Assembly (NCBI GenBank): GCA_009192285.1
Contig: WBVU01000012.1
Coordinates: 1,302,001 to 1,366,000, forward strand
DNA from: Morchella semilibera
Taxonomy: Eukaryota > Ascomycota > Pezizomycetes > Pezizales > Morchellaceae
Reading direction: 5' to 3'
Length of the DNA: 64,000 bases
The position numbers were made by a program, and so were the translations under genes. Under the pieces are notes generated by a model. It had not been told where the DNA came from. It did not search any database and was given only the letters and a program-made list of their open reading frames with translations. Within the stretch, counting starts at the first letter, position 1, and each line of letters begins with the position of its first letter. Positions 4,126-63,139 of the stretch are shown in pieces.

Positions 4126-6222
4126 ATGTACGATTCCGCACGGGACTGCTTCACCGAGCAGCAGGTTGCAGAGCAAAAAGCACTTGCAGCCGAAGCCGCA
4201 ACCCGAGCCGACCAGGAGCGCGAGCCCCGCCGCCGCATCAGCACTGTGGGCGACCTCCTGAGCCCCGTCGACGATGCTGCCTCTGCCGCCTCTGCCTCTT
4301 CTCCCCCGACCACATCTACACCAGCCCCTAGCAAGCCCTCCTCCTCCTCACCACCCACCACCACCACCACCACAACAACAACAACCACAACAACATCGAG
4401 GATGCCTGACACGCACTCTGCCCCGCTAAAGCGCAAAGACCGCGAACGCGGTGGGACCCCGCCCTCCCGCGACAACGATGCCAAACGCCGGCGTGGTAAT
4501 TCCCCATACCGCGACAACGATGCCAAACGCCGGCGTGGTAATTCCCCATGCCGCGACAACGATGCCGGACGCCGGCGCGGTAATTCCCCATGCCGCGACA
4601 ACGATGCCGGACGCCGGCGCGGTAATTCCCCATGCCGCGACAACGATGCCGGACGCCGGCGCGGTAATTCCCCATACCGCGACGACCGCCGACGCCGCCG
4701 TGACGATGACAATACCGGAAAACGTCGGCGTGTTGACGGCGGTGGCTCTGGGCCCTCCCCCGAGGAGCGGAACATATATGCCCCTCGTCGCCGGTCACGT
4801 TCTCGGTCACCCCGTGGCGGAAGACAACCGTATCAGCGGCGTCCAGTCTCCCCCGGTAGCCGGTACCGGTTCCGCTCGCCCCCACCACTGATTCCCCGGC
4901 GTGACCCATCGCCCCCCCCTCAAGTTCGCGACACTTCTCCCCCGCGCCAGCGAAAACGCCCCGGCCTGAGTGCCCGCTTCACCGAAGCCGAGCGCGAGGC
5001 ACACCGCGCTGCCATCGCCAAACGAGAAGCCGAAGCCGCCCGCCTCGCAAAAGAGAGTATCCAAGCTCGTGGCGTCAACGAGATCGTCAAAGCCCATTAC
5101 AACGACAAGCCCGAGCTCGGTAAGACTTGGCGCGAGACCCAATCCCAAATCAAGGGACTCCGGAGCTTCAACAACTGGGTCAAGTCCACTATTATCCAAA
5201 AGTTCTCACCTAACGACGGCTTCGACCCGCGTGCCAGCCACCACAACAGCGAGCGCATCTTCGTCCTCGACATGGGCTGCGGTAAAGGCGGCGACCTCCT
5301 CAAATGGAAGAGCGCTCCACAACCCGTGGAGCTCTACGTCGGTGTCGACACCGCCGACGTCTCAATCGACGATGCCCGTGAGCGCTACAATCAGATGCGG
5401 GGCGGCAACCGCCGCGGCGGCCGACCGCTCTTCGACGCCCGTTTCTACGCAATGGACTGCTGGTCGCACTGGATCGGCGAGCTGCCCCTCATCAATGATA
5501 TTGGGGCGGACCCAAACGTCGGCCCCGGGGCCGCAACCCGCTGGAGCAAGGGCGGGGGCTTCGACGTCGTCACAATGATGTTTTGCATGCACTACGCCTT
5601 CGAGTCCGAGACTAAATGCGCGACGATGCTGCGCAATGTTGCTGGAGCATTGAAGAAGGGCGGGCGCTTCATTGGCACGATCCCGAGCAGCGATGTGATC
5701 TCAGCGAGGGTCCGTGGGGAGCATCTGGACCCGGAGAAGAAGAAGGAGGTGTTGAAGGAGGAGGGCGAGGACGCCGAGTGGGGCGTCCAGGAATGGGGGA
5801 ATAGCAAGTACCGCGTGAGGTTTGCCGAGCCACCGCCACGAACGGGCGTGTTTAGGCCGCCGTGGGGGTGGAAATATAATTTCTTCCTGAAGGAGGCGGT
5901 CGAGGAGGTCCCGGAGTATGTGGTGCCATGGGAGGCGTTCAGAGCGTAAGTTTGCCTACTGCTACCCAGGATTGGATAGACCTTGGGGTGAAGGATGGTG
6001 GCTAATATTCTATTGAAATGTAGAATTGCGGAAGACTATAGCTTGGAACTCATTTATAAGAAGCCCTTTCACGACATCTGGCGCGAGGAGCGCGAAGACC
6101 GCGACCTTAAGGAGCTGGCGGAGCGTATGGGTGTCGTAGGCCGCGATGGTAGCTTCGCAATTGATGATGAGCAGTGGGACGCGTGCGGGCTCTACTTGGG
6201 ATTCGCGTTTAGGAAGATATAG
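4126..6222 (+). CDS. ABD1: mRNA cap guanine-N7 methyltransferase (Abd1)
   Basis: Transfers a methyl group from S-adenosylmethionine to N7 of the cap guanine of nascent mRNA in the nucleus. Exons 4126-5945 and 6024-6222 (intron GTAAG...TAG, 78 nt) give about 672 residues, longer than yeast Abd1 (436) because of a ~330-residue N-terminal extension. The extension is low-complexity: a poly-Thr run, five 14-residue Arg-rich repeats (4468-4677) and an RS-like stretch with many SP dipeptides. The methyltransferase domain follows: AdoMet motif I VLDMGCGKGGDLLKW near residue 380, then GVDTADVSI, the FDVVTMMFCMHYAFE block that binds the cap guanine in this family, and KKGGRFIGTIP. After the intron the reading IYKKPFHDIW and the C-terminal YLGFAFRK are as expected. 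The start is the first in-frame ATG; a start further inside the extension cannot be excluded. Convergent with IMP4. Confidence 0.95.
4468..4677 (+). repeat. Coding minisatellite, 5 x 42 bp, inside ABD1
   Basis: Five in-frame 42-bp copies encode RDNDA(K/G)RRRGNSP(Y/C). Copies 1-2 have K and copies 3-5 have G at the sixth position; the last three copies are almost identical at DNA level, which suggests recent unit duplication. A degenerate sixth start (RDDRRRR) follows. Low stop density on the opposite strand produces long antisense open frames that are artefacts. Confidence 0.95.
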
Positions 6223-26498: not shown

Positions 26499-27467
26499 TT
26501 AGCACGTAGAGGAAACATTATAGGCATGTATTTTTGTACTAACCGCAGTCTCTACCCCATGTTCTGCCTCCCATGCCTCTTGGAGCTGAGCCTCTGCCAT
26601 AACCCTGCCTCTCAAATAATCACGAAAAGCATCCGTTTCCCAATGTTTCATAGCAATCAACAGCAATCTTAGTAGAGAGGGAACCTCATTCGGGTCGACA
26701 GGCAAATTGTCACCAAGGTTACTCTCGGATATCTCATAAGCCATCTCCTCTTCTTCCCGCTGAGGCCAATAGTACCTTTCATCATTAGAGAATACAACTT
26801 CGAAACCCTGAAGTCTTTTCTGCATCTTCCTCTCCCTCTCTCTTCTTAGAGACAGCGCATGCTGTCTCCACCCATAAGGAATATCTACCGGCACCAGTCC
26901 TATTAGATTCGTCCTATTTGGGTCTGCACCAAAATACAAAAGCAGCTCAACAAGTCCGCGCCTACGCTTCTCGACAGCAAGAAATAACGGGCCCCCAATG
27001 TTCTCCTCAAGGGCGTTGGGAGTATAGCCATTTTCAAGCAATAGTTTTGTCAGAAGATAGTTCCCTTTTTTGACGGCCAACATGACCAAGCTCCAGTACT
27101 CAACACATTCATGTTTGGAAGCCCCATTTTCTATAAGCACCGCAGCCACCTGTCTGCTTCCAGCCTGAACGGCAGCCTTTAAAGCTGTGATATAGAAGGA
27201 TTGTCTCCAGGTACTATTGCCTGATTCCCAGCGGGAATTGACATCTGCTCCTTTCGCGATGAGAGACCTAACACATCTATCGTAGTTCCTATATAATGCT
27301 CGCGCAAAGCGTCTTTGAATCTCACCGACAGTAAGGAGTGAGCTTAGGAGAGATTTTGTCAGATGGTAGATTCGATGGTTGGTTCTAACGAAACGGCTGA
27401 GATTTGTAGCATCAAGATTCTCAGCGATGATATAGAGAAGCTCGTTCGGGAGAGATGTTAGAGACAT
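26499..27467 (-). CDS. F-box protein with ankyrin repeats
   Basis: Single-exon gene, 322 residues. The N-terminus SLTSLPNELLYIIAENLDA (residues 2-20) followed by TNLSRFVRTNHRIYHLT is a fungal F-box, the docking site for Skp1 in SCF ubiquitin ligases. Residues ~58-200 hold ankyrin repeats, e.g. YDRCVRSLIAKGADVNSRW, ALKAAVQAGSRQVAAVLIEN, GNYLLTKLLLENGYTPNALE and RRRGLVELLLYFGADPNRTN. The C-terminal ~120 residues are charged and unlike any family I know. The likely role is substrate selection for ubiquitination, by analogy with other F-box/ankyrin proteins; the substrate is unknown. Such genes are numerous and variable in filamentous fungi and often sit in accessory regions, as here next to a MITE cluster. 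Confidence 0.85.
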   Translation of the reverse strand: MSLTSLPNELLYIIAENLDATNLSRFVRTNHRIYHLTKSLLSSLLTVGEIQRRFARALYRNYDRCVRSLIAKGADVNSRWESGNSTWRQSFYITALKAAVQAGSRQVAAVLIENGASKHECVEYWSLVMLAVKKGNYLLTKLLLENGYTPNALEENIGGPLFLAVEKRRRGLVELLLYFGADPNRTNLIGLVPVDIPYGWRQHALSLRRERERKMQKRLQGFEVVFSNDERYYWPQREEEEMAYEISESNLGDNLPVDPNEVPSLLRLLLIAMKHWETDAFRDYLRGRVMAEAQLQEAWEAEHGVETAVSTKIHAYNVSSTC

Positions 27468-30386: not shown

Positions 30387-33300
30387 TTAAACACCTGCTT
30401 CAAAGTCTTTCTCCGATAGTAGCCTTCCGTGTACTATTTGCCCCAAATGACTAGCAAAGAAATCTTGGTCCTTGCGCCGAAATGCGATTAATTCTCTCAG
30501 GAGAGGGATCGGACTTTTAGAAAATGGTGATTCAACCTGCATCCCTAAGGATCTACGGTACTGCGGTTCCACAAACCCGTCGCTATGATTCATAACGCCA
30601 CCACTTGAAGTTGACTGTTCGATACTAGAGAGACCCAAGAACTCGCAAAGTCTCTTATAGGTTTTGTAATCTTTCAGATATACTTGACCGGCAAAGATGT
30701 TGAGCTCATCCACTAGATTTTCGGGAGTATGGGCCCGATCCCTCAACTCCCCAAGGAATGGTACCATCCCTTTTGTAACCTTTGGCGAATACATATGAAG
30801 ATTAACAAAAGTAGAGGCTCGTATCTCAGGAAGCAGTCCGTTAACCTCGTATGGACTCATTATTACTAATTGATCACCTTTACCTCTATCCGTGGAGATA
30901 ACCCAGCGAACAGGGCGGAGGAAATTATCCATCTTAGCACCAGATCTTATCTGGACCGTCTCGGCGAAGTCTTTTGTAACGAGAAGTTTTGACGACCAGG
31001 CACCAGGGTTCAAAAGCTGGCCCGCAGCAGAGGTTTCAAGTATGCTCTGAAATGCTGGCACAAAGCCCTTTGAATTATTGGCAATAATTCCGGTTCTGAT
31101 AAAATTGCGGACATCTTCATGGATTTGGTGGTCAAGAGGCTCCCGCTTTCCTGGACGCTCGACTTGCTGCTCCCTTTCAATTTCGTATGAAAGCTCCCGC
31201 TCCTGTTCCTCCTGGGCATGGGCCCCACGAAATGAATCAACCTCAAACCGCGCGCATCTTTCTCTAATGTAGAACACTTCTTTTCTTCTTTCCTCCAGCT
31301 CCTTGGGAACGGGCCCGAACAAGTCTTTGTCACCAAACTTCTCTAAACCAAATTGCTCCTCTAAACTTTTTGCCTCTTTCTCGCGTAATGAGTCTGGGAG
31401 CTCTTTGGTGTTCCGAGCTCTAGAATATGCGAGGTCTCGGCGGTGGAATGAAAAGCCTTGCTTGGCCCATATAGGGATATTATTTCGGTTACTGGTGCAT
31501 GTTTCATTCATGCACCAATATAAAACATCAGATACGCTACCGCCGGGACCCTGCGTGATATTCTGTATCTTTCTGTGAATCTCTGGAGGAGCGCAAAACA
31601 AGACCGATTGGCCTTGACCAAGTTTTCTCATCCTCATGCATGCTTTAAGGAGGTTGGTTGTCAGCTGATGGCCATTATATATATTACAAATGGGGCAAGT
31701 TCATCCTCTCACCTTGGACTAGTCTATCTTTTGTTAACTTTGGCCCAAGAGTCACCGCTGCTCTACTATTCATGGGTAACTTCAAGTCTGTGCCCCGCGT
31801 ATGAACCTCGTCAAGGTACACTAAGCAACGGTCCATTTGTTTCGAAAAAGTAGATAACTCAAAGGCCTCTGTGGTTCTATCCTCGCTGAGAACGGTGAGT
31901 TCATCGTTTTCGTTGAAAAATATAACTGCCTGCCAGCGGGCTCCGGAAGCCTTTGTCTTAGACAGCCAGTGATCTGCGACATCCCGGTTTCCCAACTCTA
32001 GAATCTGTGCCCCCACATCCAGAAGCACCTTTTTGTGTTAGCTAGGGTTTTCCAATAAGACTGGGAAAATATACCTGAATGGGGGGTTCCTTCGCGACCA
32101 ACATCTCTAAAAGTTTGTCCGTATCCATGCGCTCTCCGTTATTCTCGGCACATATATAGCTGTTCTCGGGTTGAAGAAGAAAGTTGAGAACTTTTGCGTT
32201 AGTGTTTAGCTGCTCAGGTCTATCGTATTGGAGCACTGATAAAGGTAAGAGGTCTCGGTTGTCATTTGTTCCACTAAATCCTGTCGTAGGGTGACTTTTC
32301 TCTGCGCCTATATCCCAGCCTGAGGAAGACAATTTAAAAGGAAACTCTTTTGCATGTTTGGGGAAAACAACTGAAGAGAGATAAAAGTCTATAACCCGTT
32401 TATTACGATAAAAGAATGGGAATACCGTGTCTTTAAATTCTTTCTCGTCTTGTAGGTTGATTCCGCTAAGTTTGTGATGGGTCTCCGGAACTACGTTTTT
32501 CAAGTCGTTCATCCACATTTCGTATTTATCTGCTGCAGCTGGTTTCGAGAGCCTGAAGAGGAGTTTGAAGCAATCCCGGAGTTCGTTTTCAGTCAAACCA
32601 CCGTAGTAGTAGCTCAAACAAGTTAAAGTTATCGCAACATCTGGGTGGCTGAATTCTGCTCTCGGAGCTGGGACATCCTTGGCCCGGTAAGGGACCGCGA
32701 GTAGTGTTTTGGGTATTCTTCTTGGGGCTAATCCGTAGTTGACTCTCCACCTCTTTTCCTTCAATGCAAAGAAAATAACGCCTTCAGCGATGAGTCCTCG
32801 GAGTAATAATAAGGCAACTTTGGAAGCTTTGTCTGTTTCGAAGTGTGCTAGTAGAGGTTTAATATGCTTCTGATCAACCTCCCTATCTGTAATAAATTTA
32901 TATGCCAAGTCACACATAGATTTTTCGAATCCTCGGAAGGAAACGGCAGGAATATCGCCTTTGATGACACCTGAAGCAACTTCATTCAACAGCGTTTTGC
33001 CTGCTTCTGACTTCAAGATACGCGTGGTCGGAAACCTTCCTGGTGAATCTTCCTCCAACAACTCTATATCTTCTTTGCTGGCCGCACCTGCGTGCCGTTT
33101 TACCAGATCGAAAATCCCTTGAACAATGATCCAACGATCTGGGGAACTTTCGAGAGACTTTTGTTCGCCGATTGTGTATATTAACTCGTTTTCGTGACTT
33201 AAAATCTCGTCGGATTCGTCCAGTATATCCCGTGAGTTTATTTCCAACCAATGTTGTGTATCAAGCAAGAGTTTTGCGAGCTCTTTGTCACCGCTTCCTA

Positions 33301-36300
33301 ATCTCTCGAGGCCTATAAGCTTGAAAGAGAGTATATGCTCGGGCTGGACTAAAAGGATCCCTCTTTCTTTTAGACACGCATTATACAGCCCCTGGAGTTC
33401 TTTGGCCTTAGTCATATCAAGATCCACCGCCCGTGAAAATGGCATTGAAAATATTCGCCGATTGGTTAAACCGCTGAGTTTCCGGACCAATAATTGAAAC
33501 ATCTGGGCGGAGAGTGGTCTCAAAACCATCACGCGAACGAGTTTCTCGCCATCCGCAAGAGCAGCAGAGATCATGGGCACGATGACAGAGGATTTTCCTT
33601 CTCCCATGTTTAACTGCAGCACCTGTGATACTTTAGCAAACATCTAATTCAAAGTTTCAGAGATATAGTACATACCTGATTCTTTCCGGTCGTTGGGCTC
33701 ATCATTTCATAGGCAATTCGAGCTTGCACGGCACGCACTAAAATGTTATTTTCAATCTCTAGCAGGAGCCAGTCCGGGTTCTCTTCCGGGTCCCATTCTT
33801 CGTGACCTTCGTTAATAGTCTCCCTGTCAAACTCTATCTCATCCCCAACGCAGGCCAAAAGACGTTCAGACCGCTGGACCCTTGTAATTGATTTTCCGTA
33901 AAAAACAAGGGCTTTCTTCCATTGTTCTCCCAAAGTGAGTGGCGTGTTCGCTGGGAGCTTCTGGAGTAAAGAAATGGGGGATATGCACGGCCAGAGGCCT
34001 GACATATCCATCATACACTCAGCAACTCCTATTGGGGCTAGAGCCCTTCGAATAGAATTAAATATTAACACCATATCATTTTCACACTCTTTGCAAAACG
34101 TTTCCATATCATTTTCACGCTCTTTGCAAAACGTTTCCATCTTAGCTGTTGGGTTATAATCTTCGAGGGCTCTTAGACTATCAAGCATTTCAGTAGCATA
34201 TTGCCTTTCAAACTGTCCAAGATGTGTTTCTCCGAATTTTTGCAGCAGTCGATTAAGCCGGTTGGTATTTTCTCCATGGAATGCTGTTGTATGTTGTGGT
34301 TTTGGTTGGACCGGTACCGCTCTTGGTGTTTTGAGAAAATTGGGGATGTCTCGTGAGAGGAGGGTTTCAATTAAAACTCCCCCAGGCGTCCGACCCTCGT
34401 GAACCCTGCATGGTTGAAATTTGTAACTATCAATGTGAGGCTTTATTGATTTTGACGAATCTAAAACGTTTTGTATACTTGAGATGTGTTCACGAAACCC
34501 CTTATTCCGATACCAACTAGCAAACATAGGTCCAATATTTTTCATAATATCCGACACTTTGGTAAGTCGATAGTTTTTTAGTGGGGGTGATGGGCAAGCA
34601 CATGGCCATTGGCTCATCAAGTGTTTAACCAAATCTCTAGACTCTGAATCTAAGCTTTCCTGATAAGCTGAATATTGGCGTTTTTGTAACTCTGACTCGC
34701 TCTCTCCCGGATGGGCCTTCCAAGATGCTTCCTGGCTTGAAGTAAAAGCAACCTTGTAGCCGGGGTTTTTGATAACTTGGTTCAATTCACTCTCAAGAGG
34801 AGCGTATCCCATATCTAGGTCATAGGATAGATGGCAAGGGGCAGTTAGAGTTTCGAACTTCGGATTCGTCGCAAATGCCAATAGAGACCCGACAACTCGT
34901 GGATCAGTCCCTGAGTACCCAAGTGTTGATAAGAAAAACATCAACTGGTACCTATTTTCGTTGTTTTGTGCCTTGCAACAAGCGTAGTAAACTGAGCCCC
35001 AAATACCCCCAATACCTCCAATCGCTGTGTCCTGGCTTGTCCACCGATGATCATATCCCAGCCGAAATTTTTTATCAGTAGTGGAGCCCCCAATATGTCC
35101 CCACTTCTCAAGAACCTCCATGATCTGACTTGACTTATCGAGACTTGGGAGCCAAAGATTCACTGATCTGGATATGTAATAATTCTGAGTCTTTTCGAGC
35201 TTATCAAACTTAGAATCCCTTGCAGCGTAAAAAGTATCCTTGGTTGTTTCCAGCGCTGAGCCCCCAAATTCCTCTTTTCGATAGGTGGAATTTCGGACTG
35301 CTGCCCTGTTGAGTAATTTGGTGTCGCTCTCCTCCTGGTGGTAGGGCTCTACTTCAGGCTCATCCCTTTCCCGTAGAACATGAAATCTGGTCGCGTGAGC
35401 AAATACATCCATCACGACTTGATGATATGCATCGTGTTGTATAGTCGATGCAATTGGTTTCCATTCCACAGTCTGCATCACTTGAAGATGGCGTGGATAG
35501 TAATTGCGGCTTGGCGTGAGAGATGCTATATCGCGAAGTATCATGATTTCTTCAGGCTTTAACCTCTGGAAAGAAAATGTTGCTGCTGACCGAAGATTAC
35601 TGAGGGCTTCTTCCGTACCAGTACGATTGGTAAGCGGATCTGGTAGACAATGTGAGGTAACAGCATGTAGGTATGTTTTGTATAAATGACTTGCCAAGCT
35701 AGTGTTGGAGACAAGTCGACCAAGTCTGCTGTCAACAGTATAAGAATAGTACTGAACTCTTGATAAGTCTTGCGTAAGGATCCTAACGTTAACATGGTCT
35801 CCGTGATTGCGTAGGTCGACTTTCCCGTATGGAATAATGACGTTACGGACGGTACCACGACGCAATACAAGCCGGTTTACAAGTCCGCTCAAAGTCCCTA
35901 TATTCTGATTTGGATCTATAATTGCACCCCTAAACTGTTTGGATTCTAATGCATTATCCCTATTCATGCAGAATTCCAACTTTAACCGAGGTAAGCGGAT
36001 CGATAGGGATGATTTTCCTTCCTTCGGTCTAAAGCTCATTTCCATACGAGCTGTAGTCTCCAAAGGACCAAGCACCGATTCGAGCATTCGCGCTGTTGGG
36101 CTCCGAATATCAAGCACCCTCTCCTGGCCCAGGTTCATATATATAGGCGCGGTACTAGAGAATGCCATGTGCCAATTTTGTTCAGTAGATGTCCACGGAT
36201 GGCTCATTGGTCTAAACTCGATATCTCCGGTATTAATATCCATCCAGTGCACGTATCCTTCAACAAATTGCTCTGGAAAGTCGCCTATTATCTTTTTACG

Positions 36301-39300
36301 CGGAACGAGTTCATATTCTTTGGTGCTATCTGGAACGCATGTCCTGATAACTAGGTCGTCTCCGTACATGGCGAAATGAACCTAATTTATATTTCAGAGA
36401 TATGCCTCCTATATTTAATGGGAAGTTCTGTAGGGGCTAGAGTAAAAAGGCTGCTTTATCCTTTTTATGGAGTTTAGGTCTATTGAACCTAGCACATCTC
36501 CAATGTCTAGAAGCGGTTTTGAAAGAAATTTTTCTCATACCTGATGATTCAATCTAAGACCCTTCAGGTCTTCGGACTCTGGGTCAGAAATCGGATGTTT
36601 GATCTGATAACGCATTCCAGGCATCGAAGATGGAAAGACATCGAGAACTTTCTAAAGAAAGAATCAAATTAGAGGCCAACACACTCTTCATTTGGAACGG
36701 GACTTACTCCGCTAAATAACTGTTGATAGGTCGGGTGCGAAACAAAGTTCAAAGGCATTCTACCAACTGGTGATCCATCGATAAGTAGTAATCCGTTTAG
36801 GAGATTATAGTGTAACTTCTGACTACGACTCCCTGCTCCTTCTTTGCTGGTGGTCATCAACCATCTTTCTCTAGGTCCGCAATACCTTCGCCACGACAAT
36901 ACTCCTGGGATGTAGCTCGGATGGGTCTGTTTCGCGATTTGATTGAGACCCTCACTGAAGGTTGCTCCTGATAGACCCCTGCGTATGTACTGTTCAATCT
37001 TATGTGATAAACGTCTGTCCCTATCCAAGAGATGTTTGACATTCCGAGAAAGATTACCATTGACTGGTGTGTTGTCATGCACATAGATGGCACATTCGAT
37101 CAGAGTTGCGACATCTTCGACTGAATTGAGGACACTTTTCAGATGATCTTCTCTGTTATCAACGTCGTACGTTGACCTGCATATGGCAGCCACTTGTAGA
37201 ATCCGAAGCTGCAGGTCCTTCATACTTGCCTCAATATTGCATTCCTGCGACCTTTTCACTAATTGACGAGTCCAACCCAGCACTACTTTCCTAGCTCTTA
37301 ATAATAGGCAAAAACATCTCTGTGTAATGTCCCTGTCCTTATTGGTTGATAAAAGGCGTGCTGTGATGTTTATCAAAATCCTGGCAGATGTGCTCTCTAG
37401 CCAATTGGCTTCGATACTTGTGAGCATGGACTCAAGCTCCTCGAGAAGAGTGTTCCCAAATGGGGATCTTTGAAGAATGGTGTGACATTCCCTATAGGCG
37501 TTTTCTGGGTCACGAGGTCCCGCTTGCCATGCTGCTTGCATGAACAGGGAGTACACAGCTTCGTCGTTGAACGCTAGAATACGTGCTCTAACTTCTCGGG
37601 AAATGTTGTGCCACTGAAGACGATGGCCGGCTCTCAAGGTGCCAAATGCGTCGTATTCGTGTAATGAGAGGTCGTTTGGGCAATAATTCTGGTTTGATAT
37701 GACTTCATTGGATGTATGGGAATATCCATCGACTGCGTACTGTAACTCCTTGTACGTACTTGTACCCCCAGAATCTTGAACCAAGAAAGCGCAGTCCTTC
37801 CTTATATCGACATTTCCGTGCAGAACTTTGCACCATTCGAGTTTTCTGTTATCAAATAGGGCGTAATTGAGGGCATTATCAAGGCACAGAGTACGGTCTG
37901 AGAAACCTGAAGGGTGGCCACTATAATGAGACCTATAGAAAGACTTTGTTGATGAGCACCATACAATGCGTTGTCCATAATTTTTGTAATACCGCGACAA
38001 GCCTCTATATTCCCACAGGTTCTCCTCTGGTTTCTTATCCTCATGGGGCTTTTCGGGAGAACAGATATTGACAAGAATGTTGTGGGTTTGATCCCTCCAT
38101 ACACTGAATCCCATTGGACAATCAAGCTCAAAGACAACCGCCATACGATCAAACCTATCCGCCGGAAGTGGCCATTCGTGGATGGTTATCGACATACTGG
38201 CCGCCTGTGATTGTGGGCCACACTTTGGGCATGCGTTTATGTGCCAATCCCACCGAGTATAGTGATTCGTTGGATAGTTGCACGAGTTGGAATTGTGTTT
38301 TGCCATCAAAGCAGTATGCCTCTCTACCATCTGCTTGTATTCTATTATCTTCTCCTCTTTCTCTTTCTGCGCGTCGGCCAAAATTATCTCTTCGAGTTGT
38401 TTGTGGTGTTGCGACTCTGTGAAGTATCGTACGGCGAAGGATCCTCCGCTTGGGGGCGAGAAATCCGACAATATCGGTGGATACTTAGCTCCCGAATTGC
38501 GCTGCTCAATATAAGTCTCAATACATTGTAGGCGCTCCATTTGCTGATATCTCGGTAGGAGAAGCGGCTCGAAAAGCTCTTTAGAAAACCCAGGGGCGTA
38601 GTCAGAGAGTAGGGGGTAGTGGGAAACTGCTATTTTATCCAGAGCGACCCATAGTTCGTAAGTTGTCAAGAACATAATCGACATGCTCTCAGGGTTTAAC
38701 GCATATTCTTCTTTTGCAGTGGCAGTATAGTCGTCGATCCATCCCGAAAGCGTTCGAAAGGCTCCCTCACGGTTTGTAAACGACCGTAACTTATCGACAG
38801 TCCAGCCGTTGAGGCTCTCTTGCACCCACTGCTCAAAATCGGCGAGGAGGATAGGGAGTTCATCCGCGGAGACTTTGGAAAACTCACGTGTAGATGTTGG
38901 CTCGCGTGGTGGGTGGTTGACATTGAATGGGAGTCGATCAGGGTTAGCAATTTCACGGCTCATCACCTTTTTGAGGTACTCTTTGCTATTGTTAAGAGAT
39001 AGCCGGGAATCTTCTTCGAGAGATAGGCTGTCGGGCTTCCACCGAGTAGCTTCTGAATGGAATTCTTGTATCTGTGTCCATATCTTCTGCAATCCTTGCT
39101 GATTCTTAGAAGTTATTTCAGAGGCTTTTTCCAACACAAATCCTGGAACCGCGGCGGACTTGATATCTCGGAGCTTATAAGCTCGACGGCTCAACTTCGT
39201 ATTCATGATGAACAGTAGGTCGCTGCCCACCTTCCCACTCTTTACAGCAAGATCCAGAATATCTGCAAGGAAATAGACCATGAAACTCTTATAGTGCTCC

Positions 39301-40303
39301 CTTTCCTTCAAGACGATTTGCATCGCAACCCGAACTACCAACCACAAGGGAGATCTTCGCCATGGTAGCTTGACATTTTTCCACAAAACATCATCCGCGA
39401 TCCTCTTCTGGAAGCGGTTCACTTCGGCAGGTCTTCCAATGCCAAGCAAGATTCCCGTGAGCATTTGCGTGATGAACTCCGGGTCTGCTGTGTCTCTTAT
39501 CTCAGAAACATCCTTCCCAGCTTTATGGGCTACCGGGATGGCGCTCTCAATAATATTATCATTCATCTCTTTTGCAAAATGGACAAACTCTTTACAGAAG
39601 CTGGGGTCTTGAGCTCTGGAGATTGGAATAGCAATGGCTGGGCCGGGGTATGAGACTAGGAGCCTTCTGGGGGCGCCCATAACTGCCTCGTTGGTAGCGG
39701 AGGCCTCAAAAGAGGTGAATAGCATCTCGGAGCCGAGGTGCTGAAGAATAAGGCCGGCATTCTGGGCAGCAATGTGCAAAGTGATCACATCTACAAACAT
39801 TCATATTAATTAGTAAGCTTATAACAGCACATACACTCGGCGGGAGTCTAAGTAGTCCAGTTTATTAGACCAATATATTTCCAGATAGATATATTCAATC
39901 CCTGGAGATAAACCAACAGAATTCCACGCCCGGGCTTCCTTCTAAACTATCGGCATTCATGACTCCAATAAACCAGACCATTGGGGGCTTCCGGACAAGC
40001 TATATATGCCATCTAAGTGGTTTGCTACATACCTCCCATATACATTCTCTGGATTGCATCACTCAAGCTCTTACTTGATAAAGACGATTTGCCCTGTATG
40101 TCATAAAGATTGTTGAGCATTGCGACTGCTTGGCCCCATCGGTCACCTTGCCACCCCAGCCTCTCCTGATAGCGAATAGCACTTGATTTTATGAGCAGCA
40201 AGAGCTCCGAGTTTTTGTTTTGAAGTTCTTTGTCCGCCTCATGGGGCAGCTTTGGCGGCAGAAAGACATGGTTGATGATGAAATTGAGGGTGTCTTGATC
40301 CAT
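30387..40303 (-). CDS. Giant DUF6606/DUF3638/DUF3645 protein with SecA-like ATPase motifs
   Basis: Seven exons on the minus strand: 40303-40033, 39790-36708, 36651-36541, 36381-33676, 33622-32075, 32028-31713, 31642-30387; introns 242, 56, 159, 53, 46, 70 nt, all in phase, 3,096 residues without a break. It matches the family of ~3,000-residue fungal proteins often labelled ubiquitin hydrolase-like. The N-terminus (FIINHVFLPPKLPHEAD) is the DUF6606 end. A His/Cys cluster with CPKC lies near residues 610-640. The DUF3638 core begins VLQLNMGEGKSSVIVPM (Walker A-like GEGKS ~2064-2068) and has DESDEIL (~2192-2198). The DUF3645 part has LDEVHTRGTDLKLP (~2645-2658), then LVQACMRMRKLGQGQS across the sixth intron. 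I see no confident protease catalytic set. An ATP-driven motor is my inference; biochemical role unknown. Confidence 0.92.
34073..34138 (-). repeat. 33-bp in-frame tandem duplication in the giant gene
   Basis: Two adjacent 33-bp copies differ by one base and encode METFCKEREND followed by METFCKECEND (R/C at the eighth residue). Recent slip duplication inside exon 4. Confidence 0.95.
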
Positions 40304-41952: not shown

Positions 41953-43363
41953 ATGGATAACATTGCCCAAACTCTTCGGCCAGTTGGTGAGGCTCCCTCC
42001 CCACCAGGCCATTCCCCCAGCGCACCTACTAACTACCCCCCAAGGCATGCTCGAGAAGTGGTCGACCGTCCGCCACAACCTTAGCTTCTACATCAATGTT
42101 GCCGTGACAGCCCGATATACCTCAAGCGCTTCCAACCCTCTCACTAAAGACACCATCTACCGCGCCCTCGGCGCCCTCATCGCCACACACGCCCCACTCG
42201 GCACCACAATCCTCGGCGAAAACACCCCGCACCCCAAATTCGCCCGCCTCGCGCGCATCAACCTTGACGAGATCGTGACAACTACACGCTTGCATGCTAC
42301 AACGCCTGCCGCCGAGCTCGCCGAAACCGACGAAATTTTGTCCTCGCAGCACAACCATAAGTTCCTCGAGCTTGGTCGTCTCCCGCCATGGCGCGTCATT
42401 ATTATCGCCCCCCGCACGCCTGACCCTGCCACACGTGGCGTTGATGTGGCATTCGTCTATCATCATGCCATTGGTGATGGCGCTGCAGGCCTTGTGTTTC
42501 ATCGTGCACTGCTACGTGCGCTAAATACGCCATATGAGGCGGGTGTAGAGGCACCGAGTGTCATTACGCCGCCGGAGCTACCTCTGGCGCCGCCGGTGGA
42601 AGGCCAAGTGTCGCTGACGACGTCGGTGTCAAGGCTGTGGTCCCAGGTGTGGTCCCGGAAGTCAGGCGCGGGACATTGGTGCGGCGCGGCGATCCAGATT
42701 CCGCTCAAGAATGTTGTTCGGACGGTGGTGTTCCCAGCAGATGTTGTTTCGAGTCTTGTGACTGCTTGTCGGAGGGAGGAAACGACGGTAACAGGGCTAC
42801 TCCAGGCGGTGCTGGCAAGAGCGTTTTTCGGGGTATTGAGTGAGGAAGAGGCAGAGAGGCTATCGATAACGGCAGCGGTGGATTTGAGGAGGTTTATGCC
42901 AGGTACGGCGGAGGAGACTATGGGTGTATTTGTATGCTCGGTTTCCGAGGTGCATGAGCGTCGAGCAGCGGCGGATATATGGAGTGTAGCAAGGCGGTGT
43001 AAAGCTGTCCTGCAGAAGGCGGTGGAGGCTGGTACGAAGGATACTGATACTGGGTTGCTCAAGTATTTGAGCGGCTATGAGAAATATTTCCTCGGGAAGC
43101 TGGGGGGGCGGCGGGAGCAGAGCATGGAGCTGTCGAACCTGGGGGTGTTTAAATGTGCTCTTGGTGGCGAGTGGGGCATTAATAGGATTTTGTTTAGCCA
43201 GAGTGCAAGTGTGAGCGGGTGCGCGGTGGAGTTTAGTGTAGTAAGTGTGGTGGGCGGGGAGATGTGTGTATGCGTTAGTGTACAGGAGGGAGTTGTTGAG
43301 GAAAAGATGCTGGCCGATGCAATAGAGGCGTTTGAAGCTGCCTTGGTGGAGTTGGCAGGGTGA
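41953..43363 (+). CDS. Alcohol acetyltransferase-like (BAHD/CAT-fold) enzyme
   Basis: Resembles fungal alcohol O-acetyltransferases (ATF1-type family), which esterify alcohols with acetyl-CoA; the true acceptor is unknown. Exons 41953-41986 and 42045-43363 (58-nt intron, donor GTGAGG, branch CTACTAACTA) give 450 residues. Splicing makes the family N-terminus TLRPVG-MLEKWSTVRHNLSFY; the unspliced open frame starting at 41963 has an unrelated head. HHAIGDG at residues ~151-157 is the HxxxD catalytic motif of the CoA-dependent acyltransferase fold. Later AAVDLRRFMP and ELSNLGVFKC match the structural NVR/DFG-type positions of the fold only loosely. The genome context (giant protein on one side, repeats on the other) does not suggest a cluster. 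Confidence 0.85.
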
Positions 43364-50597: not shown

Positions 50598-53500
50598 ATG
50601 GCCCGCTTGGGACGCACCGGCTTCTTAGCCGTCGCAGTCATATTCCACTTGTTCTACCTTTACTCAATATTTGACATTTATTTTGTTTCACCCATTGTCT
50701 ATGGCATGCGACAATATTCAGTCGATGCTGCGGCACCAGCCAAACGATTGTTCCTAGTTGTCGGTTTGTTCCCCCCTTATGTCTTAAGCTTACCACTTCA
50801 ATCACACTGACGCCCGGGAATAGGTGATGGCCTCCGAGCAGACAAATGTTTCCAGGAACATACCGACCCAGATGATCCGTCGGTTTCAGCACATCTCGCT
50901 CCTTTTATACGTTCTCGAGTACTCACAGCTGGTACTTTTGGTGTTTCGCATACCCGTGTTCCAACAGAATCACGACCTGGACACGTTGCCCTGATTGCGG
51001 GATTATATGAGGATGTGAGCGCTGTCACAACTGGATGGAAGATGAACCCCGTTGGGTTTGATTCGGTTTTTAACAGGAGCCGACATACGTGGAGTTGGGG
51101 ATCTCCGGATATCTTGCCTATGTTCAAGCATGGCGCCAGTGATCAGGACAGGGTCGATGCGTATAGTTATGACGAGGAAATGGAGGATTTTACCGCTGGT
51201 ATGTAGAGTACTAGTACGCAGAGGGACCATAGACTAACATGCTACAGACGCAACGAATCTGGATATTTGGGTCTTTGACCGTGTCCAAGAACTCTTCGAA
51301 TCAGCCTTAACAAACTCAACACTATATGATATGCTCCATCAGGACAAATTAGTATTCTTTCTACATCTACTAGGCCTTGACACAACCGGACACTCCTACA
51401 GACCCTACAGTCCAGAGTATCTTCGCAATATCAAAGTCGTCGATCACGGTCTGGAGAGAATTCACAAGCTAGTCAACGACTTCTACAAGCATGACGGCCA
51501 GACTGCATGGGTATTCACCGCAGACCACGGTATGAGCGATTGGGGTTCTCACGGCGATGGTCACCCCGATAACACTCGTACACCGCTTGTGGTCTGGGGA
51601 TCTGGTGTACGAAAGCCTCTCCCACCACCCAAGAATATACCTACAGGTCATGAGGATGGCTTCTCGGCGGATTGGGACCTGAATGCGGTGCGGAGAGTTG
51701 ATGTTGCCCAAGCGGATGTTGCAGCGCTAATGGCATACTTGGTGGGACTGGAGTGGCCAGTTCACTCGGTTGGGGAACTGCCGCTAGAATATCTAGATGC
51801 TGAGCCGGTGGTGAAAGCGGAGGCGGCATGGACTAATGCAAAGCAAATTTTAGAGATGTATAGGGTTAAGGAAGGTATGTTCGAAATCTGCTTTGACTGC
51901 TTTGGCTACGGCCGGGTGATGGGCTATGATCCAACAAAATCCATGCCAAGGAAATCACTTAACTTGGAAACAAGCTGATATAAAATAGAGGTGAAGAAAA
52001 CCACCATGATCAAATATAAACCATTCGCAGCCTTTGGGGAGGGTTCACAATCACTTGAGTCTCGTTTTATGGAGATCCGTCTCCTCATTGACAACCACAA
52101 ATACGTTGAGTCAGTTGCCAAGTCTCAAGAACTGATTAGGCTTGGGCTTGAGGGTCTCAGATATCTCCAAACCTACGATTGGTTGTTCTTGCGTACTCTT
52201 GTTACACTTGGATATCTTGGCTGGATCGCGTTCGCAATCACGACTGTGATAGACCTTCATGTGCTACACTCCAAAGCTGAGCACTCAAGAACAGTCACGA
52301 GCACTTTGTTTTTCTCTAGTGCCTTTGTTGTGCTGTATAGCGTACTTGTGGTACAGAGAAGTAACTGGACATACTATGCATATGCACTTTTCCCAGTCGC
52401 TTTTTGGGAGGAGGTCTTCGCGAGGCGGAAGGGGTTGTTCCAAGGGGGTAAGATGCTTGTGAACCATCTTAGCGGATTCCCGGGGATTTTAGGGCTGGTT
52501 TTTGAGGCTATTGTTTTCTTAGGAATACTGGAGGCTATGGTAGGTTTACCCGCTTCTGGAATCTAGGAGGGAGAAATATGAGGGATTAACGAGGCGATGG
52601 TATACTGAAAATTTCGGCACGATACTGGTTGACCAAGGGTCCCGAGAAATATTCACCTTACTCTCCCTCTAACCCCAAATATTCCGTCCTGGCCGTGTGG
52701 TACAGGTGAGATTGTATGCTAATCTTCGCCGGGTTTGTAACGATAGGTCTGGGGTTATTTCCAACGAGAGGTATTTACCGCTTGCTTCTGCCTCGCCGCA
52801 TTCTGGCCTTTGTCATATGGTTCCGGTTTTGTCCGACAAAACAAGCTTCTGGTGACGGGCTGGGCCATCTGCTGTGGGTTGATGAGCACCTTCACACTGC
52901 TCCCTGTACTGAAACAGGAGAGCGAGAACCTTATGTATGTCTCCCCAGCCTCGGCTAATAATATTAGCCCCGAGGTAACTAATCACAATTAATAGATTAC
53001 TTGGGGGAGGACTCATGTTCGGGCTGGGATTTTTGTATATCACGTTCGGCGAGCGTGTGGGAGGTGGTGTACAAGATTGGGTCTCAAAAACCATTTTAGG
53101 TCTTCAGGTATGTGATATACAATTTACCCCACAATTTTCAACGTGCGCTGACGATCGCGGGATAGGTCGGACTGATTGGGCTTGCTATGTACGTCACGCA
53201 CTCAAGTGTCAGATCTTTACAAGCAAAGCAGGGTCTCCCGCTGGGGAACCAAATTGTGGGGTGGAGCGTCCTCGGTTCGTTTTATCACTTTCCCCCCATG
53301 CAATCTTGCTTCCGCCCCCACACTCTTGCTTACAGTTTTGTGTACTCTGCTAGTCTTATCGATTACTGTCCCGTTCCTGCATGGGATCCGACCACAGAGC
53401 TACTATTTCCACAGATTGGTTGTAATATTCCTCACATTCTCGCCGACCTTTGTCGTTCTCACGATTTCATATGAGGGACTCTTCTATGTGGTATTTTGCC

Positions 53501-54108
53501 TTACTCTTGTAGCATGGGTACGCCTTGAGCACAAGATCTACCTCCACTCTCATCACCCTACCAACAGTCCCATGACCAGCAAGACACTACCGGATGCAGC
53601 ATCCACTGCCATTGACTCCACCGCAGGGACAGGCGAATGGCGTTCATTGACCCTCGCCGATTCCCGTGTAGCCCTGTTCTTCTTTTTCCTGATCCAAATT
53701 GCCTTTTTTGGCACTGGAAATATCGCTTCTGTGTCTTCCTTCTCATTAGACAGTGTTTATCGTCTCATCCCCGTCTTTAGCCCCTTCGCCATGGGCGCAC
53801 TCCTGATATTTAAGCTCCTCATCCCATTCGCTGTCATCTCTGCAAATTTGGGTGTACTAAATCGCCGCATCGGTGTAGCGCCGAGTGCGCTTTTTATGGT
53901 CGTTATGGCGATCAGTGATGTCCTCACATTGAACTTCTTTTATATGGTCAAAGATGAGGGCAGTTGGCTGGATATCGGCACGACGATTAGTCACTTTTTT
54001 ATATGCGGACTTCTGGGTGTGTTTGTGAGCGCTTTAGAGTTTCTTAGTGAAGTGTTTGTTGGTGGGGTCAGTATGGAGGATGTAGGGGATAAAAAGAAGG
54101 TGCAGTAG
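50598..54108 (+). CDS. MCD4: GPI ethanolamine phosphate transferase 1 (Mcd4/PIG-N)
   Basis: ER enzyme that adds ethanolamine phosphate to the first mannose of GPI precursors. Eight exons: 50598-50763, 50824-51198, 51248-51874, 51989-52539, 52747-52934, 52996-53107, 53166-53274, 53336-54108, all in phase, 966 residues (yeast Mcd4 919). An N-terminal membrane segment ([20 protein letters not shown]) leads to a luminal alkaline-phosphatase-fold domain: [12 protein letters not shown] (metal ligand), [13 protein letters not shown] (Thr nucleophile), [17 protein letters not shown] and [20 protein letters not shown] (metal ligands). The C-terminal half is a multi-span membrane domain, e.g. [36 protein letters not shown] and [19 protein letters not shown]. 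Introns are 49-114 nt except the fourth (207 nt). Many exons are short, so automated models may skip exons 5-7. Confidence 0.95.

Positions 54109-62087: not shown

Positions 62088-63139
<1,052 letters not shown>

What the first reader, a model, noticed from the sequence alone, without database searches (positions are those of the whole stretch)
31600..33645. SecA-like motor motifs inside the giant DUF3638/DUF3645 protein
Seen: NMGEGKSS (Walker A-like), then ~125 residues later DESDEIL followed by ENELI, then ~450 residues later DEVHTRGTDLKLP and LVQACMRMRKLGQGQ. Known: bacterial SecA has GEGKT, the DEAD-type DEVDSIL...EARTPLI, the motif V signature GRGTDI.LG, and motif VI Q.RGR.GR.G in the same order. 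The order and local wording match one by one (DE.D.IL, RGTD.KL, Q..xR.R.xGxG). Inference: DUF3638 and DUF3645 are the two halves of one RecA-like SF2 ATPase in a ~3,096-residue eukaryotic protein, which would make it a protein- or nucleic-acid-moving machine rather than a plain hydrolase. This is the strongest candidate here for an under-described system.
Basis: partly seen in the sequence, partly recalled or inferred. Interest (0 to 1): 0.75.

Follow-up and report, generated by a model that had tools for sequence, protein, structure and literature searches.

The report
Giant fungal protein hides SF2 motor
A 3,096-residue fungal protein known only by 'unknown function' labels carries the sequence motifs of an ATP-driven helicase-type motor, and relatives of similar size and layout occur in many Chlamydia-like and Legionella-like bacteria, but what the motor moves is still unknown.

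Summary
The motifs are real. They lie on the minus strand in an intact 7-exon, 3,096-aa gene. In 49 aligned rows (4 fungal loci, 45 loci from bacterial records, one held twice), most of the invariant or nearly invariant residues are SF2 motif residues: Q2041, G2066-K2067, D2192-E2193, T2509, Q2678, R2682, R2684. Profile comparisons place lobe 1 in SF2; the AAA+ control ClpB does not match. Lobe 2 rests on conserved motifs, spacing and a low-confidence model.

Two corrections. DUF3645 is not the second half: it lies in a ~310-residue insert between motifs II and III, and the RGTD lobe has no Pfam match. The family is SecA-like in motif order and in that insert, but fails SecA membership; lobe 1 scores nearest RecQ.

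New here: the motor starts at residue 1,792-2,367 in six chlamydial proteins and 2,015 in the fungus. DUF3638 passes its cut-off in 94 of 232 Chlamydiota and 55 of 143 Legionellales genomes. Most likely an ATP-driven translocase or remodeller; substrate open.

The parts
30387..40303 (-). whole gene, 7 exons (40033-40303, 36708-39790, 36541-36651, 33676-36381, 32075-33622, 31713-32028, 30387-31642), 3,096 aa
   Evidence: hand-built splice model, GT-AG introns, no internal stop; no transcript seen
39255..40303 (-). N-terminal DUF6606 (PF20255); the exon-2 part, aa 92-269, is matched; exon 1 is inferred to hold the start of the model
   Evidence: Pfam E 1.4e-67 on exon 2, profile 83-266 of 267
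35512..36315 (-). aa 1178-1445, region upstream of the motor shared with chlamydial homologs
   Evidence: HMM of bacterial upstream regions: 41.4 bits with 44 rows, 38.2 bits with 40 chlamydial rows alone
33086..33804 (-). DUF3638 (PF12340), aa 2015-2236, across the exon 4/5 junction = SF2 lobe 1
   Evidence: Pfam E 9.5e-97 on the spliced core; DEAD E 0.0093 over aa 2039-2200
33724..33726 (-). Q2041, Q-motif-like glutamine
   Evidence: 49 of 49 rows
33590..33604 (-). motif I / Walker A GEGKS, aa 2064-2068
   Evidence: G2066 and K2067 in 49 of 49 rows
33200..33220 (-). motif II / Walker B DESDEIL, aa 2192-2198
   Evidence: D2192 and E2193 in 49 of 49 rows, D2195 in 45 of 49
32621..32725 (-). 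DUF3645 (PF12359), inside the roughly 310-residue insert between motifs II and III
   Evidence: Pfam E 5.8e-18; P2375 49 of 49, P2368 48 of 49, F2381 44 of 49
   Evidence: T2509 in 45 of 49, G2508 in 40 of 49; aligned to SecA SGMTGTA
32008..32019 (-). D2577-A2580 (DVGA), motif-IV-like start of lobe 2 (assignment inferred)
   Evidence: D2577 in 47 of 49 rows, the other 2 being gaps
31774..31812 (-). motif V DEVHTRGTDLKLP, aa 2646-2658
   Evidence: G2652 in 41 of 49, D2654 in 42 of 49 rows
31608..31716 (-). motif VI QACMRMRKLGQGQ, aa 2678-2690, split by an intron
   Evidence: Q2678 in 46 of 49; R2682 and R2684 in 43 of 49, the other rows being gaps
30387..31607 (-). C-terminal tail of about 400 aa, no Pfam match, only weak likeness to bacterial tails

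Best explanation
The giant DUF6606/DUF3638 protein is a superfamily 2 (SF2) ATPase of the helicase/translocase type. Shown by sequence: lobe 1 (DUF3638) carries the Q residue, P-loop, DE box and, after a long insert, motif III; a second conserved block carries motif V and motif VI. Inferred: this block is the second RecA lobe; ATP is held between the lobes; K2067 and D2192-E2193 bind and hydrolyse it; R2682/R2684 act as the arginine fingers; motif III couples hydrolysis to lobe movement. The roughly 310-residue insert between motifs II and III sits where SecA (recalled) carries its preprotein-binding domain and most likely touches the substrate, while the long N-terminal region (DUF6606 and an uncharacterised part shared with bacteria) most likely selects or scaffolds it. 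The cycle would pull or remodel a chain. Whether the chain is polypeptide or nucleic acid is not decided.
For: Invariant residues fall on SF2 motifs across 49 fungal and bacterial rows. At E <= 10, 20 of 45 members touch ResIII (best 2.1e-4) and 13 touch DEAD (best 1.3e-4), the window protein at 0.0093 from the Q residue to motif II. hhalign family vs RecQ scores 52.2 over 141 columns, like SecA vs RecQ at 52.5, against a best of 24.1 in 60 column shuffles; Mfd 40.4 vs 24.1 and UvrB 27.2 vs 24.8; RecG 35.8 vs 23.3, SecA 35.8 (motif II) and 34.5 (Q to I) vs 28.6; ClpB 22.2 vs 24.9, i.e. no match. V-VI spacing is 24-27 residues, as in RecG, Mfd and RecQ (25-27); II-III spacing is 273-368, against 162-283 in SecA and 26-39 in RecG, Mfd and RecQ. 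Foldseek of the lobe-2 model: 33 of the top 50 are SF2 motors by title. Members L141 and L157 show QxxGRxxR. Sub-threshold PF12340 hits in five genomes, read by eye, look like Mfd, PriA and other helicases.
Against: Lobe 2 has no profile hit above shuffle level to any family compared and no helicase C-terminal Pfam model among those listed (25 of 54 families). The SecA motif III block (28.1) does not beat the best shuffle (28.6). SecA vs RecG scores 78.6, far above the family's 35.8. The +7 arginine of motif VI is present in only 2 of 43 rows. hhalign E-values are for single comparisons.
Confidence: 0.82

Rival explanations
1. It is a SecA-type polypeptide translocase: a true SecA relative grown into a giant protein, threading polypeptides with the II-III insert as its preprotein clamp.
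For: Motif order I, II, III, V, VI; DESDEIL/DEVDSIL and TGFSGTN/SGMTGTA align in hhalign; a large II-III insert as in SecA and unlike RecG, Mfd, RecQ; with a chlamydial reference row one SecA block (36.1, 46 columns) falls inside the insert, though not with the window row; SecA chains at ranks 10, 18, 25, 41 of the lobe-2 fold search; giant chlamydial proteins with a true SecA_DEAD domain exist (L189).
Against: A SecA HMM of 23 rows finds none of 49 members at E <= 0.001, best 0.056; no SecA family among those listed; motif V not aligned in register; V-VI spacing 26 against SecA's median 62; RecQ scores higher.
Confidence: 0.28
2. It is a nucleic-acid helicase or remodeller (RNA or DNA), for instance of surveillance or silencing type, with its own large accessory regions.
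For: Nearest profile match is RecQ lobe 1; DEAD and ResIII models; UvrB leads the lobe-2 fold search, with MrfA and MDA5 in the top ten.
Against: No nucleic-acid-binding domain in Pfam scans of five of the seven exons or of six full-length chlamydial proteins; the II-III insert is unlike RecQ, RecG and Mfd.
Confidence: 0.45
3. The SF2 core is a regulatory nucleotide switch or a former motor, not moving anything.
For: The canonical +7 arginine of motif VI is present in only 2 of 43 rows.
Against: Walker A lysine and Walker B DE are invariant in 49 of 49 rows, and arginines at +4 and +6 in 43 of the 43 rows with data, which argues for selection on hydrolysis.
Confidence: 0.15
4. The motif likeness is chance, or the P-loop belongs to another class (AAA+, STAND).
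For: AAA_30 and AAA_22 models touch 3 and 2 of 45 members at E <= 10; dynein is the top Foldseek hit of the first, weak model.
Against: The ClpB control does not exceed shuffles; RecQ, Mfd and RecG do; ordered motifs are conserved over great distance. STAND proteins were not compared.
Confidence: 0.04

Closest known systems
SecA preprotein translocase ATPase (PF07517 SecA_DEAD)
   Same: motifs I GEGK, II DExD, III TGT, V RGTD, VI in the same order; large insert between II and III
   Different: no SecA model match among those listed or with a SecA HMM; insert matched by DUF3645; ordinary V-VI spacing; motor placed after about 2,000 residues
RecQ-type SF2 DNA helicases (TIGR00614)
   Same: best profile match of lobe 1, 141 columns from before the Q residue to past motif II, far above shuffles
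   Different: II-III spacing 35-39 against 273-368 in the family; lobe 2 not aligned
RecG/Mfd translocases
   Same: Q-to-I block above all 60 shuffles; V-VI spacing about 26
   Different: no II-III insert, spacing 26-30
DUF6606/DUF3638/DUF3645 family (PF20255, PF12340, PF12359)
   Same: this is the family it belongs to
   Different: Pfam gives no function; in the held library DUF3638 is named in 4 papers, in the passages seen only in passing

Membership tests
SF2 helicase/translocase superfamily | motif I GxGK[ST] and motif II DExx (canonical forms recalled) | tested here: met
   G2066 and K2067 49 of 49; position 2068 T in 31, S in 18; D2192 and E2193 49 of 49
SF2 helicase/translocase superfamily | motif III [ST]-[AG]-T | tested here: met
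   T2509 45 of 49; forms SGT, TGT, SAT and TAT seen
SF2 helicase/translocase superfamily | motifs V and VI downstream, about 26 residues apart | tested here: met
   V-VI 24-27 in the 46 of 49 rows measurable; Q and two R kept, the second R at +6 and an R at +7 in only 2 of 43 rows
SF2 helicase/translocase superfamily | tandem RecA-like fold | tested here: inconclusive
   low-confidence models; 33 of 50 top hits of the lobe-2 model are SF2 by title, none at E <= 0.001
SecA | match to a SecA sequence model | tested here: not met
   SecA HMM (23 rows) against 49 members: none at E <= 0.001, best 0.056; no SecA family among those listed (25 of 54 and 25 of 31 families shown)
SecA | large insert between motifs II and III | tested here: met
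   family 273-368 (46 of 49 rows), SecA 162-283 (15 of 23 rows measurable), RecG/Mfd/RecQ 26-39
SecA | preprotein-binding domain fold, scaffold and wing domains, SecYEG binding (recalled) | not testable with these tools
   the insert had low pLDDT
AAA+ | profile match to an AAA+ unfoldase (ClpB) at the P-loop | tested here: not met
   best ClpB score 22.2, within the shuffled range (maximum 24.9) and away from the P-loop

The most novel reading that the evidence does not exclude
DUF3638 proteins are a separate, ancient class of giant SF2 translocases that evolved a SecA-like substrate insert independently, move polypeptides through or off a large N-terminal scaffold, and are shared by fungi and host-associated bacteria, with the bacterial copies multiplied into repertoires (up to 11 scored matches in a genome, a lower bound) that act at the host interface.
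Probability: 0.25. Interest if true: 0.85.

Novelty: new variant of a known kind. Interest (0 to 1): 0.6.

Why it matters
A domain labelled 'unknown function' and reported in passing from fungi, a ciliate and microsporidia gets a testable enzymatic class with named catalytic residues, and a giant-protein family shared with Chlamydiota and Legionellales becomes one problem instead of several. The motif table turns it into point-mutant experiments (K2067, E2193, R2682/R2684), and the corrected place of DUF3645 points at the insert most likely to touch the substrate.

Tried and rejected
DUF3645 as the second RecA half: rejected, Pfam places it in the insert. Single-sequence PDB search with a paralog: no helicase or SecA; the top row (VopV) has no stretch that passes on its own. 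PDB search with the family profile: best DinG 0.09, then CHL1, XPD and PriA mixed with antibodies, suggestive only. Viral contigs: no relatives; the 3 pattern hits were not relatives. Plasmids: none with one bacterial core. The first genome-contig scan found none. NCBIfam gave nothing at E 0.01 on two chlamydial proteins and two window exons; PADLOC gave scattered weak hits (best 2.9e-4 in 1 of 45; typeIV_DinG in 2 of 45). First hhalign runs used wrong-strand ORFs for some SecA rows; redone and the first results dropped. Alignment A3 had a misaligned window exon-7 row, dropped for A4; A5 was trimmed to A6. Rows dropped before counts: A2 (45 rows) leaves out L039 (same locus as L139), L035 and the fungal rows L3 and L4; the tree (46 rows) leaves out L039, L035 and L131. 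SecA spacing was measurable in 15 of 23 rows, RecG 14 of 15, Mfd 8 of 11, RecQ 20 of 20, UvrB 9 of 13, family 46 of 49. Because L042 may be a eukaryotic contaminant, the upstream HMM test was repeated without it; it held. The pdb_via library was not available.
Full report
Gene. The finding lies on the minus strand. Seven exons (40033-40303, 36708-39790, 36541-36651, 33676-36381, 32075-33622, 31713-32028, 30387-31642) give 3,096 aa without internal stops. The genome (56,756,124 bases in 23 contigs) has introns and a fungal-type transcription-factor ORF nearby, so it is taken as a fungus; its name is not known to me. DUF3638 occurs at this gene and at C12, C13, C4, C21 and C22; the C12/C13 pair and the C21/C22 pair are identical over the 3.7 kb fetched, so I count four distinct loci. 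Identity of the other three cores to this one is 52-57%, and all four keep GEGK[ST], DESDEIL, SGTND and HTRGTD. All show ACMRMRKLG after an intron at the same place in motif VI (implied by the frames).

Corrected domain map. DUF6606 lies at the N-terminus, DUF3638 at aa 2015-2236, and DUF3645 at about aa 2357-2391. DUF3645 is therefore between motif II (2192) and motif III (2507-2509), and the exons with RGTD and motif VI have no Pfam match at E <= 1.

Relatives. A DNA pattern for Q-x-x-MGEGK[TS] in the genome-contig collection gave 33 stretches. An HMM of the four fungal cores found real relatives in 5 of them: L042, L043, L039, L019, L035 (E 6e-54 to 4e-12). In the 232 genomes of the phylum of L035, taken as Chlamydiota from its title, 110 had a PF12340 match at E <= 0.001 and 94 passed the curated cut-off. 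Five genomes with sub-threshold hits, four of them without a passing match, were searched again; six such ORFs, read by eye, look like Mfd, PriA and other helicases, so 94 is the safer count. In the order of L019, taken as Legionellales, 56 of 143 genomes matched and 55 passed. Many of the listed open frames are 2,000-5,000 aa. Forty chlamydial regions, chosen from those hits, were fetched; with the five loci above, 45 of 45 matched the fungal core HMM at E <= 0.001. In six full-length chlamydial proteins of 2,914-3,487 aa the DUF3638 match starts at residues 1,792-2,367, comparable with 2,015 of 3,096 in the fungus. One region holds two such genes side by side (L294). An HMM of bacterial upstream regions also matches the fungal protein at aa 1178-1445: 41.4 bits with 44 rows, 41.8 bits without L042 and the duplicate, 38.2 bits with 40 chlamydial rows alone. 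Kinship therefore reaches beyond the motor; the C-terminal tails match only weakly. A tree of 46 cores puts the four fungal copies together (100/100) and L042 next to them (100/98); it is unrooted, so the direction of any transfer is open.

Motifs. Motif names and canonical forms are recalled knowledge. Across 49 rows: Q2041, G2066, K2067, D2192, E2193 and P2375 are invariant; G2064 is 96%, D2195 92%, T2509 92%, D2577 96%, G2652 84%, D2654 86%, Q2678 94%, R2682 and R2684 88%, the missing rows of the last three being gaps. Other strongly kept positions are not SF2 motif residues: P2368, F2381, L2027, M2063, L2198, G2209. Alignment A2 lists much the same set. Motif III appears as SGT, TGT, TAT or SAT. 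Two divergent chlamydial members (L141, L157) read QTVGRLRR and QHVGRLRR; these are the only 2 of 43 rows with an arginine at +7, the others having G 21, Q 9, K 7, L 2, E 1, D 1 there.

Similarity to known motors. Scanned one by one at E <= 10, 45 of 45 members hit DUF3638, 20 touch ResIII (best 2.1e-4) and 13 touch DEAD (best 1.3e-4); 25 of 54 families were listed and no SecA model was among them. With hhalign (single comparisons, so E-values are not database-wide) the family scores 52.2 with RecQ, 40.4 with Mfd, 35.8 with RecG, 35.8/34.5/28.1 with SecA at motif II, Q-I and III, 27.2 with UvrB, and 22.2 with ClpB. The best of 60 column shuffles was 24.1 (RecQ), 24.1 (Mfd), 23.3 (RecG), 28.6 (SecA), 24.8 (UvrB), 24.9 (ClpB). 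So the SecA motif III block alone is not beyond chance, and the UvrB match is marginal. As yardsticks, SecA scores 52.5 with RecQ, 54.2 with Mfd, 35.8 with UvrB, 26.7 with ClpB, but 78.6 with RecG. Lobe 2 gave no block above shuffle level. With a chlamydial row as reference, one SecA block (36.1) falls in the insert; it is absent with the window row and was not pursued. Plain HMMs of SecA, RecG, Mfd, RecQ, UvrB and ClpB find no member at E <= 0.001 (best: RecQ 0.0015, Mfd 0.0054). The link is therefore at profile level, through lobe 1, and to SF2 as a whole.

Geometry. Median spacings I-II, II-III, III-V, V-VI are 136, 309.5, 145, 26 in the family (46 of 49 rows); 104, 180, 119, 62 in SecA (15 of 23); 101, 27, 126, 26 in RecG (14 of 15); 101, 26, 117, 26 in Mfd (8 of 11); 96, 35, 114, 27 in RecQ (20 of 20); 295, 56, 114, 30 in UvrB (9 of 13). 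The big II-III insert is a SecA-like feature; the V-VI spacing is ordinary SF2.

Structure. AlphaFold on an 811-residue stretch of L043 with seven rows: mean pLDDT 52.0, pTM 0.32, with better parts in lobes 1 and 2. Foldseek gave no hit at E <= 0.001; rank 1 is dynein (0.0099), 11 of the top 50 are SF2 by title, SecA at rank 15. Lobe 2 alone (276 aa, four rows): pLDDT 56.7, pTM 0.51; no hit at E <= 0.001, but 33 of the top 50 are SF2 motors by title, counting large complexes by their named motor, led by UvrB (E 0.013, probability 0.90), with SecA at ranks 10, 18, 25 and 41. No control model was searched, so this is supporting evidence only.

Literature. DUF3638 occurs in 4 held papers and DUF3645 in 1; PF12340, PF12359 and the InterPro numbers I recalled occur in none. 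Passages seen: a figure-legend label for a microsporidian large gene family (PMC5423893), a Tetrahymena novel gene whose mechanism is called undefined (PMC12615304), an expanded family in Hypomyces (PMC6627653), a gene table in A. oryzae (PMC6237848). SecA or SecA-like domains in proteins of intracellular bacteria or their phages are in print (passages in PMC5062602, PMC3482391; PMC8195603, for actinobacterial secreted toxins); none of these is among the papers that hold the word DUF3638. Subscription papers and preprints were not searchable, and whether Pfam's clan list already files DUF3638 with P-loop NTPases could not be checked.

Verdict. The SecA reading holds as 'built like', not as 'is'. 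The two-DUF reading is wrong. Substrate and biological role remain open.

Noticed in passing
L189 (G102:C4, open frame 5,178 aa): A giant chlamydial protein with a SecA_DEAD match (E 2.5e-24; FTGEGKS, DEVD, GLSGTLG, AGRGTDLK, QGFGRTARSG), apart from the DUF3638 family but in a genome that also carries it.
   Followed up: partly
L294:15-17744: Two giant genes with DUF3638 matches (2,863 and 2,917 aa) head to tail with under 400 bases between them; a few other chlamydial contigs list matches about 10 kb apart.
   Followed up: partly
L042 (Bacterium isolate M30B43): Closest non-fungal row to the fungal copies; filed as bacterial but may be a eukaryotic contaminant.
   Followed up: no
G000 C12/C13 and C21/C22: Identical DUF3638 loci at nearly the same coordinates on paired contigs, suggesting two haplotypes or nuclei, or redundancy, in the assembly.
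   Followed up: no
window 26499-27467, minus strand: Ankyrin-repeat ORF near the giant gene.
   Followed up: no
window 41963-43363, plus strand: Alcohol acetyltransferase-like (AATase) ORF next to the giant gene.
   Followed up: no
window 4126-5949, 51991-54108, 62297-63139: ORFs matching mRNA cap methyltransferase, PIG-N and thymidylate synthase: ordinary housekeeping neighbours.
   Followed up: no
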